Source: a bacterium (lineage in GTDB: Bacteria > Myxococcota_A > Bradymonadia > UBA7976 > UBA1532). Taken from it: 64,000 nt of DNA. The first letter of the stretch is position 1; the number at the start of each line of letters is the position of its first letter. Positions 5,794 through 18,880 of the stretch are shown in pieces. Position numbers and translations under genes: made by a program. The notes beneath the pieces were generated by a model that saw nothing but the letters and a program-made list of their open reading frames with translations, made no database searches and was not told where the DNA came from. Location: the NCBI GenBank assembly GCA_030426085.1, contig JAUHYW010000029.1, positions 1 to 64,000 on the forward strand. Direction: 5' to 3'.

Positions 5794-8568
5794 ATGCGAC
5801 GCGCGACGATGTCCGCACTCGCCCCGGCGATGTGCGCTTGCCTGATCCTGGCGCTGCCCGGCGGCGCGCAGGCCCTGCCCGACCACTTCATGCAGGAGGG
5901 GCTGCTGACCACGAACGACGGGGCGCCGCTGGACGGCGTGCATCGCTTCCGAGTGCGGCTGCTGGACGCCCCCCGGGCCGGCGCGCTGCTGTTCGAGGAG
6001 GTGCACCCCGACGTCGAGATCATCGACGGGTACTACGCCCTGGCCATCGGCGCGCAGGAGGCCCTGCCGGCCGGGCTGTGGGCCGGCGAGGTGTACCTCT
6101 CGCTCAGCATCGACGACGGGGCCGAGCTGCTGCCCCGGATCCGGCTGCGCAAGGTGCCGGCGGCGTTCGTGGCCGATCTGGCCTACGGGGTGGTGGGGCC
6201 GATCGCGCCGGAGTCGGTGTCGGTGGGCGGGCGGCTGGTGATCGACGACGGCGGGCGCTGGGTGGGTGATCCGACGGGGCTGCGGGGGCCGCCGGGGCCC
6301 GCGGGCGAGGCGGGGCCCGAGGGGCCGCAGGGGCCGCGGGGGCCGGCGGGCGGCGAGGGGTCGCCCGATACGCCGCAGCAGGTGCGGGACAAGCTGGTGC
6401 AGGTGGACGGGGCCGGATCGGGGATCGACGCCGATCGGCTGGACGGGGCCGAGGCGGGCGACTTCGTGCGCACCGCGGCCCAGGTGCTCGCCCGGCTGGT
6501 GACGGTGGACGGGGACGGCTCGGGGGTCGACGCGGACCGCCTGGACGGCCTCGACTCGACCGCGTTCGTGCGCACCGCCGAGCAGGTGCGCGATCTGCTG
6601 CGCACGGTGGACGGCGGCGGCTCGGGGGTCGACGCCGATCGGCTGGATGGCCTGGACTCGACCCAGTTCGTGCGCTCGGCGGATCAGGTGCGCGATCTGC
6701 TGCGCGCGGTGGACGGCGACGGATCGGGGGTCGACGCCGACCGCCTGGATGGCCTGGACTCGACCCAGTTCATGCGGGCCGATCGCAACACCGGCACGGC
6801 GGGCGATCTGACGGTGGGGCAGACGCTGGTCGCCGACGAGGCCCGCATCGGGGGCGACGGCCGGCTGGGGGTCGGCGTCGAGGATCCCCAGGCCCGGGTC
6901 GACGTGGACGGCGACATCCGGGCCGACGCGCTGTGGCTGCGGCCCCAGGACGCCGAGCCGGCCGATCCCCCGGCGGGGCTCTTGTACTTCGACGCCGAGC
7001 GGCAGGGGCTGCGGGTGTGGGACGGCGGGCAGTGGGTCGATCTGAACGGCGGCGGGGGCGAGGACGAGGTCCCCGAGGGGGCCATCGATCCGGCGGCGTA
7101 TCGGCGGGTGATCGCGGAGGACGGCCCGGTGGCCTACTGGCCGCTGAACGAGCGCAACGGGGTGCGGGCCGAGGACTTCTCGGGCTTCGGGCGCCACGGG
7201 ACCTACGTCGGCGACGTGCTGCTCGGGGTGCAGGGGCAGGTGGGGCGGGCGGTCAACATCCGCTCGCGGGGGCACGTCGACACGCCGGTGCGGCTGGACG
7301 GGATGATGCCGAACGACCGGGGCACGGTGACCGCGATCATCCGGCTGCCCGACGCCTACACCGCGTTCGGCGCGCGGGCCTACACCTCGCGGCACCAGGT
7401 GTGGTCGACCCGGGCCTACTGGCAGGGCATCAGCGTGGGCCGGGTGGCCGGCGTCGACGGGGTGCACTTCTGGTACTTCTGGAACGGCAGCACCGAGTAT
7501 CAGGTGCACGTCGCGACCCCGCCCGGGCGGTGGGTGCACGTGGCGTGGGTGGTGCGCGGGGGGCGGCTGTACGCCTACGTCAACGGGGTGGAGTCCTCGG
7601 TCGCCGCGCCCAACCCGATGGGCAGCCCGGGCATCTTCAACATCGGCCGCTACCACAACACCGAGCAGACGACGCCGCCCCCCTACCCCGGCGAGATCCA
7701 GCACGTCGCGGTGTTCGCCGACGGGCTGAGCGCCGCCCGCATCCGGGCCCAGGTGGCGGCGGCGGGGCTGGCCGGGGCGAGCGGGCAGAGCCGGGAGGAG
7801 GCCGGGCGGACGTGCAAGAGCATCCTCGACGCCGACCCCGGGCTGCGGGGGCAGGACGGGCTGTATTGGATCAACCCCGAGAGCGACGATCCGGCGGATG
7901 CAGTCCAGACGTTTTGTGACATGACGATCGACGGCGGGGGGTGGAGCCTGGTGTCATACGCGCCGTCGGGCAGCGCGCGGGCGATGTGTGCCTTCGACGG
8001 CAACACCCGCAATCTGTATCCGATGAGCACCGGCGGCGGGGCGTGGGATCCGGCCGATCGGGCGTCGGCGGCGAGCCTCGCGGCGGTGCCCATCGCCCGC
8101 CGCTCGACCGAGATGCTGCTCGCCCGCAGCGACCGCGACGGGGCCACCGGCGCCATCGGGGGCATGGACGTGGTCAACAAGTTCACGATCCCCGATCCGT
8201 CGATCGTGCACTTCGACAACGCCAGCCCCGGCCGGGGCGACATCGACCGGGGCGTCTGCACCCGGGTGCAGCTCACGACCCTGCGGGGGCCCGACGCGAC
8301 CGGGGCGGTGCGCTACACCTGGAGCCGCTCCCTGATGGTCACCTGGAGCGACACCTACCCCACCGGCTACGGGGTCAACTCGGCGAACGACTGTCAGCAG
8401 AGCACCACCGGGCCGGCGTATACGACCTCGTTCACCGGCCGCGGCTGGCCCCAGCGCTACTGCTGGCCCCACGACGCGCTGGGCGGGGCCTACACCTACT
8501 GGCACCGGGGCTGGTGGGATCCGGCGCAGCACGACCGGACCGGCTCGGTCAGCATCTGGCTGCGGTGA
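5794..8568 (+). CDS. Exported multi-domain protein: collagen-like stretch, 34-residue repeats, LamG-like and fibrinogen-like domains
   Basis: A 924-residue exported protein. Signal peptide at residues 1-27 (cleaved near GGAQA). An N-terminal beta domain of the kind that precedes tail-fibre-like repeats follows (about 28-155). Next is a Gly-X-Y collagen-like run at about 162-190 (GPPGPAGEAGPEGPQGP), four 34-residue repeats with core SGVDADRLDGLDS (about 197-330), and a laminin-G/concanavalin-like domain beginning PVAYWPLNE (about 445-660). The C-terminus is fibrinogen-like, with CDMTIDGGGWSLVSY and paired Cys (about 670-924). ATG 5,794 was chosen because GGAGG lies six bases upstream; earlier in-frame Met codons lack a ribosome site. 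Likely a surface or matrix adhesin (inference); each domain type is known in bacteria, but this combination is unusual. Confidence 0.8.
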   Translation: MRRATMSALAPAMCACLILALPGGAQALPDHFMQEGLLTTNDGAPLDGVHRFRVRLLDAPRAGALLFEEVHPDVEIIDGYYALAIGAQEALPAGLWAGEVYLSLSIDDGAELLPRIRLRKVPAAFVADLAYGVVGPIAPESVSVGGRLVIDDGGRWVGDPTGLRGPPGPAGEAGPEGPQGPRGPAGGEGSPDTPQQVRDKLVQVDGAGSGIDADRLDGAEAGDFVRTAAQVLARLVTVDGDGSGVDADRLDGLDSTAFVRTAEQVRDLLRTVDGGGSGVDADRLDGLDSTQFVRSADQVRDLLRAVDGDGSGVDADRLDGLDSTQFMRADRNTGTAGDLTVGQTLVADEARIGGDGRLGVGVEDPQARVDVDGDIRADALWLRPQDAEPADPPAGLLYFDAERQGLRVWDGGQWVDLNGGGGEDEVPEGAIDPAAYRRVIAEDGPVAYWPLNERNGVRAEDFSGFGRHGTYVGDVLLGVQGQVGRAVNIRSRGHVDTPVRLDGMMPNDRGTVTAIIRLPDAYTAFGARAYTSRHQVWSTRAYWQGISVGRVAGVDGVHFWYFWNGSTEYQVHVATPPGRWVHVAWVVRGGRLYAYVNGVESSVAAPNPMGSPGIFNIGRYHNTEQTTPPPYPGEIQHVAVFADGLSAARIRAQVAAAGLAGASGQSREEAGRTCKSILDADPGLRGQDGLYWINPESDDPADAVQTFCDMTIDGGGWSLVSYAPSGSARAMCAFDGNTRNLYPMSTGGGAWDPADRASAASLAAVPIARRSTEMLLARSDRDGATGAIGGMDVVNKFTIPDPSIVHFDNASPGRGDIDRGVCTRVQLTTLRGPDATGAVRYTWSRSLMVTWSDTYPTGYGVNSANDCQQSTTGPAYTTSFTGRGWPQRYCWPHDALGGAYTYWHRGWWDPAQHDRTGSVSIWLR
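6382..6789 (+). repeat. Four-copy 102-bp in-frame tandem repeat
   Basis: Four head-to-tail units of exactly 102 bases start at 6,382, 6,484, 6,586 and 6,688, each coding 34 residues around a conserved SG(V/I)DADRLDG core. Units three and four are nearly identical in DNA, which points to recent duplication; unit one is the most diverged. Confidence 0.85.
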
Positions 8569-15550: not shown

Positions 15551-15736
15551 TCAGAAGCCTCCGCCGATGCCATAGTCGAACGCGAAGTGCCCCTCCGCAT
15601 ACGGAAACAGCGTCAGCCGTGCGGACCCGGCGATCGGATCGACGTTCTGACAGTCGTTGCCCGCCGGCTTCTCCTGGGCCGCCGCCGGGCCGGACGCGAG
15701 CACCAGCGCCGCGACGGTGAAGGCCCGGGCGTTCAA
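15551..15736 (-). CDS. 61-residue exported protein with TTG start, last of a three-gene overlapping operon
   Basis: A very short exported protein: signal peptide NARAFTVAALVLASGPAAAQ cleaved near residue 21, then about 40 mature residues with one Cys and an aromatic/Gly end (FDYGIGGGF) like the first strand of an outer-membrane beta protein. The TTG start is supported by GGGAGG six to seven bases before it and by the TTGA overlap with the preceding lipoprotein gene's stop. The product may be a complete small protein or the remnant of a longer one; no in-frame continuation after the stop was checked in detail. Function unknown. Confidence 0.6.
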   Translation of the reverse strand: MNARAFTVAALVLASGPAAAQEKPAGNDCQNVDPIAGSARLTLFPYAEGHFAFDYGIGGGF

Positions 15737-16134
15737 GGCCCGCCTCCCACGTCGATGCCACCGGGCAGCGACGTGCCATCGGACCGCTCGACGAGCAGCG
15801 GGCAGGCCGGCGAAGACGCGAGCCAGCGGTCGAGGTCGTCGCCGTAGCCTGCGATCGTGTCGCAATCGAGCCGACCCACGGCGAGTGAGCAATGCCACAG
15901 CTCTTCGTAGGGCGTCGTGACAGGATCCCACTCGATGCACCGGTATGATGCGAAGAAGGCATCGTAGCGCGCGTTGGCCGCGTCGTGGTCGGCCGCGCAG
16001 GCGAACGTGCGGGCCGAGATGACGCCGGCGAGGTCGTCGCAGGCGGCGGTCGAGCCCTGGGTGTCGATGTCGACCCGGGTGTAGTCGCAGCCGAGCGCGA
16101 GGGCGGCGAGGGCGAGCGCGAGGCGGGCGATCAC
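15733..16134 (-). CDS. Small lipoprotein of unknown function
   Basis: A 133-residue protein with a GTG start, signal peptide and lipobox ALGC (Cys16). The mature part has several Cys (about positions 32, 46, 66, 82, 90, 110) that could form disulphides, and no recognised domain. The GTG overlaps the stop of the VHL-like lipoprotein gene as GTGA, and its own stop overlaps the next TTG. The three genes are thus almost certainly co-translated, and their products share the periplasm or outer membrane. Confidence 0.7.
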   Translation of the reverse strand: MIARLALALAALALGCDYTRVDIDTQGSTAACDDLAGVISARTFACAADHDAANARYDAFFASYRCIEWDPVTTPYEELWHCSLAVGRLDCDTIAGYGDDLDRWLASSPACPLLVERSDGTSLPGGIDVGGGP

Positions 16135-16556
16135 AGCTCGATGACCTCCGTCGGTGTCTCGGAGAGCGTAACCGTATGCAGCAGCGCGCCGTCTTCGGTG
16201 CGCAGGCGCCAGACGTGCTCGACGAAGCTCTCCTGGTCCCGGAACTCTCGAGGAGGCACGACCTGATACCGTCGCTCACCGCATTCGTAGTCGAGCCACC
16301 ACATGACGATCGGGGTCGGCGTCGCGTTGATGACCCGCAGCACCGTGGCATCACCCTGGCCGGCGGTGCACCGCTCGGGCGGCGCGGCATCCCACGGGCT
16401 GCCGTCGCTCGGGTCGCCGCCGTCTCCGAGGTGCTCGGCCCACGCCGTGGGGTCCGGCTCCGGAGGGATGACCGGCTCCTCGCCGTGACACGCGCCGAGC
16501 AGGATCGCCGCAGCCAGAACCGCCGAACGCGAGGCCCGGCGCGGGTGACAGCGCAT
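16131..16556 (-). CDS. Lipoprotein with a VHL (von Hippel-Lindau) beta-domain
   Basis: A 141-residue lipoprotein: signal peptide with lipobox LLGAC (Cys23), an acidic linker, then a single domain at about 69-141 that aligns without gaps to the human VHL beta domain. The residues lining the VHL hydroxyproline pocket are all kept at identical spacing: Trp87, Tyr97, Ser110, His114 and Trp116 here match human Trp88, Tyr98, Ser111, His115 and Trp117. The VHL alpha domain (elongin box) is absent. ATG 16,556 was chosen because it puts the signal peptide at the N-terminus; a frame to 16,682 exists but makes no export signal. It heads a three-gene overlapping operon. VHL-like domains are known in some bacterial proteins; binding of hydroxyproline is inference. 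Confidence 0.75.
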   Translation of the reverse strand: MRCHPRRASRSAVLAAAILLGACHGEEPVIPPEPDPTAWAEHLGDGGDPSDGSPWDAAPPERCTAGQGDATVLRVINATPTPIVMWWLDYECGERRYQVVPPREFRDQESFVEHVWRLRTEDGALLHTVTLSETPTEVIEL

Positions 16557-16690: not shown

Positions 16691-18880
16691 ATGATGCGCA
16701 CCTGCCTCGTAGCGCTGGGGTTCGCGATGTGCCTCGCCCCCGGCTGCCGCCGGGCGACCCCGTCGGCGGACGCCCCCGTCGACGCGGCCCCTGCGGGCGA
16801 CGCATCGCCCCTGCGTGACGCCTCCGCCCGGGTCGACGCCGAGGTCTCCGACGTCACCGCCCCTGCCCGACCGCCCTGGGCCCTCGTCCGAGCCGCCGAG
16901 CAGGCGTGCGCCGACTGTCACCCGGCCGAGGTCGAGAGCTGGCGCGCCTCGCCGATGGGACGCAGCATGGGGCCCATGGCCCCGGGCCCGATCGGCCGGG
17001 CGCCGGGCGAGGTCACCCACCCCGAGACCGGTGAGCGCTTCACCGTGCGCCCGACGCCGACCGGGCTGCGGTTCGAGGAGGTCGGAGGCCACGCGGCGGT
17101 GGCGACCCACGCGGTGGGCAGCGGATCGCATACGCGCTCCTTCCTCCGCCGGGGTGACGGTCGGGCCGAGCTGATGCCCCTGACCTGGTATCGCAGGACC
17201 GGCGGCTGGGGTCTGTCGCCGGGCTACGCCGCGCCCGACCACCCAGGCTTTCACCGGGCGATGAACCTCGAGTGCCTGACCTGCCACAACGACCCGGCGG
17301 CGACCGCGCCCGGTGATCCGGAGCGCTTCGTCGAGCCGTTCGCCGAGGGCATCGGCTGCGCCCGGTGCCACGGGGACGGGCGGGCCCACGTCGAGGCCCG
17401 CATGGCCGGCGGCGACGCCCCCATGGTGATGCCGGATCGCCTCGACGCCGGGCTGGGAGCCGACGTCTGCGGGCAGTGCCACCTCCAGGGCGCGGTGCGG
17501 CTGCTGCGGGCCGGGCGGGACTGGGATCACGTCGTGCCCGGCCGGCCGCTGGGCGAGGTGGTGGCCGTCTTCGCCCGCGCTCAGCCCGGCTCGGGCATCG
17601 GCATCGCCAGCCACGCCGAGCGCCTGCGCCGCAGCCGGTGCGCGACGTCCGACCCCGAAGCGGGGCGGTGCACGACCTGCCACACGCCGCACCCGACCGG
17701 GCCCCGACCCGACCGCTCGGCGGCCTGCCGGGGGTGCCACGCGCCCCAGGGCGCGGCCCACTGCGCCGGGCCCGCCGAGGATGACTGCGCGGGGTGCCAC
17801 ATGGCGCGGGTGGACACCGCTGACATCCCCCACGTCGCGATGACCGACCACTTCATCCGCGTCCGGCCGCGGGCGCCAGATCGGCCGGCGACCGACCGCG
17901 GGCCGCTGGTGTGGATCAACCGCCCGGCGGGGGTCGCCGACGCCGAGGCCCGGGTGCTGCTGGGGCGGGCGTGGGCCGAGTCGGCCCGGACCCGGGTCTC
18001 GACCGATGATCGCGATCGGGCGATCGCCCTGCTCGAGCCGGCCCTGGCCGAGCGCCCGGCCGACGCCGCCGGCTGGGCCGATCTGTCCTCCATGAAGCTG
18101 CTCGCGGGGGACGTCGCCGCCGCCCGGCAGGCGATGGAGACCGCGGTGACGCGCGCCCCGCACCCGCCCGCCCGCTGGTGGGCGTCGCTGACCCGCCTGC
18201 GCATGCAGACCGGGGCCATCGCCGAGGCCCGCGCGGCGCTGGCCCGGGCCCGGGCGCTGCGCCCGGGGCACGCGCCCGACGCGCTGCTCGCGGCTCAGCT
18301 CGCCGCGGGGCGCCCGGCCGAGATGCAGGCCGAGATGCAGGCGTTCGAGGCGGCCCGCCCGGGGCAGGCCGACGGGGTGATGCTGCGGGGGGCGCTGGCC
18401 CGGGCGGCGCTCGATCCGGTGGCGGCCGAGCAGGCCTTCGCCGAGGCCGTCCGCCGGGAGCCGGGCGACCCCGCCGGCTGGCTGAATCTGTGTCGCATCC
18501 GGGCCGATCTGCACCGGTGGGACGCTGCCGACGAGGCGTGCGCCCGCGCGGCGGCGCTGGCCCGGGGCGCGGCCGCGGTCGCCCGGGTGGCCGGCGCCCG
18601 GGCCCGGGTGGCCCTCGCCCGGGGGCAGGGTCGGACGGCGGCCGAGCTGGCGGCGGCGGCGATGCAGGCCGCGGGCGCCGACGCCGCGTACGTGCTGGGG
18701 CGCCTTGCGCTCGACGCCGGCCGCCCGGACGACGCGCTGAAGCTGCTCGATCGGGCGGTGCAGGCCGAGCCGACCCTGGCCGACGCCTGGGCTGCGCTGG
18801 CCGAGGTGCTGCGGGCCCGGGGCGAGAGCGATCTGGCCGAGCGGGCCGCGACCCAGGCCCGGCGATTGGGGGCCCGGTGA
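16691..18880 (+). CDS. Seven-haem cytochrome c lipoprotein with C-terminal TPR repeats
   Basis: A 729-residue protein. Signal peptide and lipobox LAPGC (Cys19), then an Asp/Ala linker. The cytochrome domain (about residues 70-385) carries seven CXXCH haem sites: CADCH, CLTCH, CARCH, CGQCH, CTTCH, CRGCH and CAGCH. About 330 residues of alpha-helical TPR-like repeats follow (GWADLSSMKLLAGDVAAARQ and similar). This layout resembles multihaem cytochrome/TPR proteins of Deltaproteobacteria that receive or store electrons outside the inner membrane. Its stop overlaps the GTG of a histidine kinase gene (GTGA), an unexpected partner for a respiratory protein. Electron donor and acceptor are unknown. 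Confidence 0.82.
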   Translation: MMRTCLVALGFAMCLAPGCRRATPSADAPVDAAPAGDASPLRDASARVDAEVSDVTAPARPPWALVRAAEQACADCHPAEVESWRASPMGRSMGPMAPGPIGRAPGEVTHPETGERFTVRPTPTGLRFEEVGGHAAVATHAVGSGSHTRSFLRRGDGRAELMPLTWYRRTGGWGLSPGYAAPDHPGFHRAMNLECLTCHNDPAATAPGDPERFVEPFAEGIGCARCHGDGRAHVEARMAGGDAPMVMPDRLDAGLGADVCGQCHLQGAVRLLRAGRDWDHVVPGRPLGEVVAVFARAQPGSGIGIASHAERLRRSRCATSDPEAGRCTTCHTPHPTGPRPDRSAACRGCHAPQGAAHCAGPAEDDCAGCHMARVDTADIPHVAMTDHFIRVRPRAPDRPATDRGPLVWINRPAGVADAEARVLLGRAWAESARTRVSTDDRDRAIALLEPALAERPADAAGWADLSSMKLLAGDVAAARQAMETAVTRAPHPPARWWASLTRLRMQTGAIAEARAALARARALRPGHAPDALLAAQLAAGRPAEMQAEMQAFEAARPGQADGVMLRGALARAALDPVAAEQAFAEAVRREPGDPAGWLNLCRIRADLHRWDAADEACARAAALARGAAAVARVAGARARVALARGQGRTAAELAAAAMQAAGADAAYVLGRLALDAGRPDDALKLLDRAVQAEPTLADAWAALAEVLRARGESDLAERAATQARRLGAR

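What the first reader, a model, noticed from the sequence alone, without database searches (positions are those of the whole stretch)
15551..16556. Exported VHL beta-domain lipoprotein with a complete hydroxyproline pocket, heading a three-gene overlapping operon
The domain at residues ~69-141 lines up without gaps to human VHL. The five pocket residues (Trp88, Tyr98, Ser111, His115, Trp117 in human) are present here as Trp87, Tyr97, Ser110, His114, Trp116, with identical spacing. In animals this pocket reads prolyl hydroxylation of HIF. Here the protein is a lipoprotein outside the cytoplasm, without the alpha domain, and translationally coupled to another lipoprotein and a 61-residue exported protein. 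A bacterial surface reader of hydroxyproline, for example on collagen-like proteins such as the one encoded at 5,794-8,568, would be new. That link is speculation; the pocket conservation is direct.
Basis: partly seen in the sequence, partly recalled or inferred. Interest (0 to 1): 0.8.

Follow-up and report, generated by a model that had tools for sequence, protein, structure and literature searches.

The report
Bacterial surface VHL protein, intact hydroxyproline pocket
A bacterium of the Myxococcota carries a small surface-type lipoprotein with the same fold and binding-pocket residues that let the human tumour suppressor VHL recognise hydroxyproline; it belongs to a bacterial family found in a conserved outer-membrane gene set and often fused to protein-digesting enzymes, which makes a bacterial hydroxyproline reader plausible and easy to test.

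Summary
Window 16131-16556 (-) encodes a 141-aa lipoprotein whose residues 76-120 match Pfam VHL above its cut-off (21.9 bits, cut-off 21). AlphaFold gives a confident beta-sandwich whose listed best PDB matches are all pVHL. Trp87, Tyr97, Ser110, His114 and Trp116 sit where the human hydroxyproline pocket residues sit.

The surroundings change the reading in three ways.

1. The three genes are a degraded copy of a conserved Myxococcota module: VHL lipoprotein, 6-Cys lipoprotein, ~430-aa outer-membrane beta-barrel. The window's '61-residue exported protein' is that barrel with about 370 residues deleted in frame.

2. In the module's first-gene slot the pocket is nearly all-or-none: nine proteins keep 5/5 residues, eight homologues keep 0-2, one keeps 3. 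The fold does not need the pocket, so its retention implies a ligand.

3. In Planctomycetes and Verrucomicrobia the same domain is fused to exported-looking peptidases: 20-21 of 35 scanned proteins are DPP-IV/S9 prolyl peptidases and about ten more carry HExxH.

The most likely role is an extracytoplasmic binder of hydroxyproline/proline-rich peptides. Binding is unproven. The collagen link is weak (ten Gly-X-Y triplets, one Pro at Y). The genome has a prolyl-hydroxylase/GlcNAc-transferase fusion but no hydroxyproline epimerase.

The parts
16131..16556 (-). VHL beta-domain lipoprotein, 141 aa; lipobox LGAC with Cys23; domain about residues 63-141; pocket W87, Y97, S110, H114, W116; likely extra disulphide Cys63-Cys92 shared with relatives (inferred)
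15733..16134 (-). gene 2: GTG start overlapping the VHL stop (GTGA); 133-aa lipoprotein (ALGC) with six further cysteines invariant in five aligned homologues; no Pfam family; accompanies almost every gene-3 locus found
15551..15736 (-). gene 3 remnant: TTG start overlapping the gene-2 stop (TTGA); 61 aa = signal peptide and N-terminus plus the C-terminal strand of a ~430-aa outer-membrane beta-barrel, about 370 residues deleted in frame
16197..16331 (-). stretch matched by Pfam VHL profile positions 15-59, containing the whole pocket

Best explanation
The protein is a genuine VHL beta-sandwich displayed outside the cytoplasm as a lipoprotein. It is the binding subunit of a three-gene outer-membrane module (VHL lipoprotein, six-Cys lipoprotein, beta-barrel). 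Its pocket (Trp-Tyr-Ser/Thr-His-Trp) most likely holds a 4-hydroxyproline, or a closely similar proline-type ring, in an extended peptide, in the way pVHL holds hydroxylated HIF. It would thereby capture hydroxyproline-rich proteins or peptides at the cell surface; in Planctomycetes and Verrucomicrobia the same domain would bring such substrates to a fused prolyl or metallo-peptidase. In this genome the barrel gene has been reduced to a 61-residue remnant, so the window copy acts without its barrel or is decaying. Shown: homology, predicted fold, pocket residues, module conservation, near all-or-none pocket pattern, fusions, deletion. Inferred: export and surface position, ligand identity, function.
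For: Fold and homology. In 33 Pfam-found Myxococcota domains: W88 33/33, H115 33/33, W117 32/33, S/T111 30/33, Y98 21/33. In 47 further loci from several phyla found with a pattern that did not require W88 or Y98: W88 47/47, Y98 41 Tyr + 5 Phe. In the operon slot, found by position rather than by the pocket: nine proteins with 5/5, one with 3, eight homologues with 0-2 of 5; the pocket-less ones are still VHL relatives by profile comparison (98.1%, E 6.5e-14), so the fold persists without the pocket. Fusions: of 35 scanned VHL proteins 21 carry DPPIV_N and 20 Peptidase_S9; 11 of the 47 extracted proteins have HExxH upstream of VHL, plus three more in Myxococcota. Module: gene 3 in 17 of 379 genomes, gene 2 next to virtually every copy.
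Against: No binding data. Most bacterial homologues have Thr where human has Ser111. Myxococcota relatives vary at Y98 (21/33 Tyr). None of the VHL-positive genomes in the sample has a hydroxyproline epimerase / proline racemase gene, so free hydroxyproline is not an evident nutrient. The nearby 'collagen-like' protein is barely collagenous. The window copy has lost its barrel partner, so it may not be functional.
Confidence: 0.5

Rival explanations
1. The pocket is a real binding site but for another ligand: unmodified proline-rich peptide, another hydroxylated or glycosylated residue, or a small ring compound.
For: Fused enzymes are prolyl peptidases, for which plain X-Pro substrates suffice; Thr replaces Ser111 in most bacterial members and Y98 varies in Myxococcota; many of the source organisms are free-living groundwater, lake or marine bacteria (contig titles).
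Against: The hydroxyl-contacting positions (Ser/Thr111, His115) are conserved together with the aromatic cage, as in the known hydroxyproline reader; a plain proline pocket would not obviously need His115 (inference).
Confidence: 0.3
2. The beta-sandwich is only a structural or assembly partner of the barrel, and the pocket is an inherited or structural feature without a ligand.
For: Homologues in the same operon slot persist without the pocket.
Against: Near all-or-none retention of five dispersed residues in proteins only 20-35% identical and retention in unrelated enzyme fusions argue for a common ligand.
Confidence: 0.12
3. The protein reads hydroxyproline that the bacterium makes itself, using its own prolyl hydroxylase.
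For: The genome encodes a GlcNAc-transferase (PF11397) fused to two 2OG-Fe(II) domains, the last closest to collagen P4H alpha-2 and bacterial P4H; 2OG oxygenases are somewhat enriched in VHL-positive genomes (16/27 against 129/352, Fisher p = 0.024, not corrected for relatedness).
Against: No export signal is evident on the hydroxylase, and it lies on another contig; 11 of 27 VHL-positive genomes lack a strong PF13640 hit.
Confidence: 0.12
4. The window locus is a decaying operon: the ancestral module was functional but this copy is on its way out. This is compatible with the best explanation for the family as a whole.
For: Gene 3 has lost about 370 internal residues and no other copy exists in the assembly.
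Against: VHL and gene 2 are intact, with overlaps, lipoboxes, cysteines and the full pocket kept at 50% identity to the congeneric copy; the remnant is still in frame. An assembly error cannot be excluded.
Confidence: 0.3

Closest known systems
Human pVHL beta domain (PDB 1lm8, 1lqb; 4awj with capped hydroxyproline; 7cjb)
   Same: Fold (rmsd from 1.3 A), the five pocket residues and their spacing, Asn78
   Different: Lipoprotein with a signal sequence, no alpha domain or BC box for Elongin C, extra Cys pair, no HIF or ubiquitin system
Bacterial proteins annotated with Pfam VHL (e.g. Litorilituus sediminis EMK97_00595, PMC9002001)
   Same: Same Pfam domain in a bacterium
   Different: That paper treats the domain as a tumour-suppressor analogue; the passages I read do not describe an exported hydroxyproline reader, the outer-membrane module or peptidase fusions
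DPP-IV/S9 prolyl peptidases and HExxH metallopeptidases with a VHL domain in Planctomycetes and Verrucomicrobia (loci L064, L061 and others)
   Same: VHL domain with intact pocket on exported-looking proteins
   Different: There it is fused to a catalytic domain; here it stands alone in an operon with a barrel gene
Svx extensin-cleaving peptidase of Pectobacterium (PMC13164431)
   Same: Functional analogy only: exported bacterial protein with an accessory domain that recognises a hydroxyproline-rich glycoprotein
   Different: Its recognition domain is acyltransferase-like and binds arabinan; VHL is not mentioned in the paper; no homology tested

Membership tests
VHL beta-domain family (PF01847) | Profile match above the curated cut-off | tested here: met
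   21.9 bits, cut-off 21; congeneric orthologue 33.2 bits
VHL beta-domain family (PF01847) | VHL-type beta sandwich | tested here: met
   Predicted model, block means about 94-98 pLDDT over the domain; listed top PDB hits all pVHL
VHL beta-domain family (PF01847) | Hydroxyproline pocket W88, Y98, S111, H115, W117 | tested here: met
   All five present in register
pVHL E3 ligase substrate receptor | Alpha domain with Elongin C-binding BC box | tested here: not met
   The protein ends right after the beta domain at residue 141
pVHL E3 ligase substrate receptor | Intracellular location | tested here: not met
   Signal sequence with lipobox LGAC read directly from the sequence; no signal-peptide predictor available
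Hydroxyproline reader | Hyp-dependent peptide binding | not testable with these tools
   Needs protein and peptides
Three-gene Myxococcota module (VHL lipoprotein, 6-Cys lipoprotein, barrel) | Gene 2 family next to the VHL gene | tested here: met
Three-gene Myxococcota module (VHL lipoprotein, 6-Cys lipoprotein, barrel) | Full-length ~430-aa outer-membrane barrel as gene 3 | tested here: not met
   Only 61 aa remain; full length in G001, G077, G290

The most novel reading that the evidence does not exclude
Bacteria use an extracytoplasmic VHL domain as a dedicated hydroxyproline-peptide binding module, either as a lipoprotein in an outer-membrane capture system or fused to prolyl peptidases. 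The animal oxygen-sensing reader would then be one intracellular use of a widespread, possibly older hydroxyproline-binding fold.
Probability: 0.42. Interest if true: 0.88.

Novelty: new variant of a known kind. Interest (0 to 1): 0.72.

Why it matters
pVHL is the textbook hydroxyproline reader, and no bacterial counterpart with that function was found in the papers searched. A bacterial family with the complete pocket, retained nearly all-or-none on a fold that survives without it, and repeatedly fused to prolyl peptidases, gives a directly testable route to (a) how microbes recognise collagen, extensin and algal hydroxyproline-rich proteins, (b) where the animal oxygen-sensing receptor came from, and (c) new small hydroxyproline-binding reagents.

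Tried and rejected
Link to the collagen-like protein at 5794-8568: it has ten Gly-X-Y triplets, one Pro at Y, plus LamG and a COLFI match just below cut-off, so it is not a convincing substrate. Hydroxyproline as a nutrient: PF05544 epimerase/racemase is absent from this genome and from every VHL-positive genome in the sample. Own-hydroxylase idea: co-occurrence with PF13640 only weakly positive and confounded by kinship. The G059 VHL hit (L022) was discarded because it lacks the pocket and looks spurious. The first genome-contig scan with the broad alignment failed because no stretch was conserved enough; a narrower alignment worked. Foldseek on the barrel gave only generic porin/FadL-type barrels with low TM-scores, so no transport substrate can be named. 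The gene-3 tree does not show pocket state to be one clade: at least two changes are forced.

Full report
THE OBSERVATION. The coding sequence is 16131-16556 on the minus strand, ATG start, 141 aa. It begins MRCHPRRASRSAVLAAAILLGAC, a signal sequence ending in a lipobox with Cys23; this was read by eye, since no predictor was available. Pfam finds VHL (PF01847) at residues 76-120 with 21.9 bits against a curated cut-off of 21. It is the only VHL hit in the genome. The pocket residues are W87, Y97, S110, H114 and W116, in the register of human W88, Y98, S111, H115 and W117. A sequence-only search of the PDB already puts pVHL first (E = 0.013). A profile of 19 bacterial relatives finds pVHL at E = 2e-14. 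The AlphaFold model from 31 rows has block means of about 94-98 pLDDT from roughly residue 71 to 140, and the Foldseek hits listed are all pVHL, rmsd 1.3 A over 78-88 columns at best, including pVHL bound to capped hydroxyproline (4awj) and to hydroxylated peptides.

THE OPERON IS REAL, BUT THE THIRD GENE IS A REMNANT. VHL and gene 2 overlap by GTGA, gene 2 and gene 3 by TTGA. In the congeneric genome G001 the order is the same: VHL lipoprotein (50% identical over the whole protein), gene 2 (72%) and gene 3, which there is 429 aa. The window's 61-aa product matches only the first ~55 and the last 23 residues of that protein. No other piece of it exists elsewhere in the own assembly. AlphaFold on eight rows models gene 3 as a long antiparallel strand series typical of an outer-membrane barrel (pTM 0.73); Foldseek matches are generic porins and FadL with low TM-scores. 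The window therefore holds a three-gene module whose barrel gene suffered an in-frame deletion of about 370 residues. An assembly error cannot be ruled out.

THE MODULE IS CONSERVED ACROSS MYXOCOCCOTA. The phylum is inferred from named contigs that coincide with members of the sample, e.g. the Sorangium MAG L052/L024, and L054 = G001. A gene-3 profile hits 17 of 379 genomes. Gene 2, with a lipobox and six cysteines invariant in the five aligned sequences, lies beside every gene-3 locus except one contig-end fragment. The slot upstream of gene 2 often holds a lipoprotein with a VHL domain, including several that the Pfam search had missed. A second operon type pairs another VHL lipoprotein subfamily with a ~740-aa lipoprotein (L036, L050, L038, L034).

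THE POCKET IS NEARLY ALL-OR-NONE. Most of those slot-1 proteins were recognised by position, so their pocket residues are a fair sample. Nine keep all five residues, one keeps three, eight keep none to two. The pocket-less ones are still VHL relatives by profile comparison (probability 98.1%, E = 6.5e-14), with the same Cys pattern and length. The fold therefore does not need the pocket, and its complete retention elsewhere suggests selection for a ligand. In the 33 Pfam-found Myxococcota domains W88 and H115 are invariant, W117 is kept in 32, S/T111 in 30, Y98 in 21. In 47 loci from Verrucomicrobia, Planctomycetes, Actinoplanes, Chloroflexi and others, found with the pattern Qx[TS][FY][VAS]GHVW[RIV] that does not touch W88 or Y98, W88 is 47/47 and Y98 is 41 Tyr plus 5 Phe. 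The confirmation step used a query that has both residues, so a mild bias remains.

WHAT THE DOMAIN IS FUSED TO. Of 35 VHL proteins scanned, 21 carry DPPIV_N and 20 Peptidase_S9; VHL lies ahead of the propeller. In 11 of the 47 extracted proteins an HExxH metallopeptidase-like region lies upstream of VHL, as in three Myxococcota proteins. Prolyl peptidases beside a hydroxyproline-type pocket are the strongest hint to ligand class, though plain proline-rich substrates would fit as well.

SOURCES OF HYDROXYPROLINE. The genome encodes a PF11397 GlcNAc-transferase (the family that modifies hydroxyproline on Skp1, from general knowledge) fused to two 2OG-Fe(II) domains, the last closest to collagen prolyl 4-hydroxylase alpha-2 and bacterial P4H. 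It has no evident export signal. Across the phylum sample, 16 of 27 VHL-positive against 129 of 352 VHL-negative genomes have a strong PF13640 hit (p = 0.024, no correction for kinship). PF05544 (4-hydroxyproline epimerase / proline racemase) is absent here and from all VHL-positive genomes of the sample. The 'collagen-like' protein at 5794-8568 has one run of ten Gly-X-Y triplets with one Pro in Y. So the ligand is more likely from outside the cell than from that protein.

MECHANISM. Shown: homology, predicted fold, pocket residues, pocket pattern, module, fusions, deletion. Inferred: lipoprotein export, surface display, peptide binding by the pocket with the ring stacked in the Trp/Tyr cage and the hydroxyl held by Ser/Thr and His, and handing of the captured substrate to the barrel or to a fused peptidase. 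I give hydroxyproline (or hydroxyproline-like) binding about 50%.

COMPARISON WITH THE KNOWN. It is a VHL beta-domain protein but not a pVHL ubiquitin-ligase receptor: no alpha domain, wrong compartment. Bacterial VHL annotations exist (PMC9002001), so the domain's presence in bacteria is not new. In the searchable literature I found no description of the module, of the pocket pattern or of the prolyl-peptidase fusions; a survey of prokaryotic prolyl oligopeptidases shows no occurrence of 'VHL' (PMC4522959, counted). Most subscription papers and all preprints were not searchable.

Noticed in passing
L106 (own genome contig C162) 4116-7856: GlcNAc-transferase of the Skp1-hydroxyproline family (PF11397) fused to two 2OG-Fe(II) oxygenase domains, the last P4H-like: a possible bacterial protein-hydroxyproline modification enzyme.
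   Followed up: partly
L064, L075, L086, L096 and about 16 other genome-contig loci: VHL domain placed ahead of the propeller of exported-looking DPP-IV/S9 prolyl peptidases in Verrucomicrobia and Planctomycetes; one (L060) also carries DUF885.
   Followed up: partly
L055 5767-11430: Rhodobacteraceae DSL-40 protein with nine tandem VHL domains plus a beta/gamma-crystallin / peptidase-inhibitor I36-like stretch.
   Followed up: no
L036 7009-9656, L050 4993-7757, L038, L034: Second conserved operon: another VHL lipoprotein subfamily followed by a ~740-aa lipoprotein.
   Followed up: partly
L024 1-1686 (= L052; Sorangium MAG): VHL domain behind a transmembrane-like stretch after kinase-like motifs (DFG, APE): possible receptor-like Ser/Thr kinase with an external VHL domain, start of gene unclear.
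   Followed up: no
L107 6018-6998 (own genome contig C17): WelO5-type 2OG halogenase relative (157 bits).
   Followed up: no
window 5794-8568: Exported-looking protein with a short collagen run, LamG domain and a COLFI (fibrillar collagen C-terminal) match just under cut-off.
   Followed up: partly
window 16691-18880: Divergently transcribed, exported-looking multihaem cytochrome with TPR repeats next to the VHL operon; same neighbour in G001 (62% identity).
   Followed up: no
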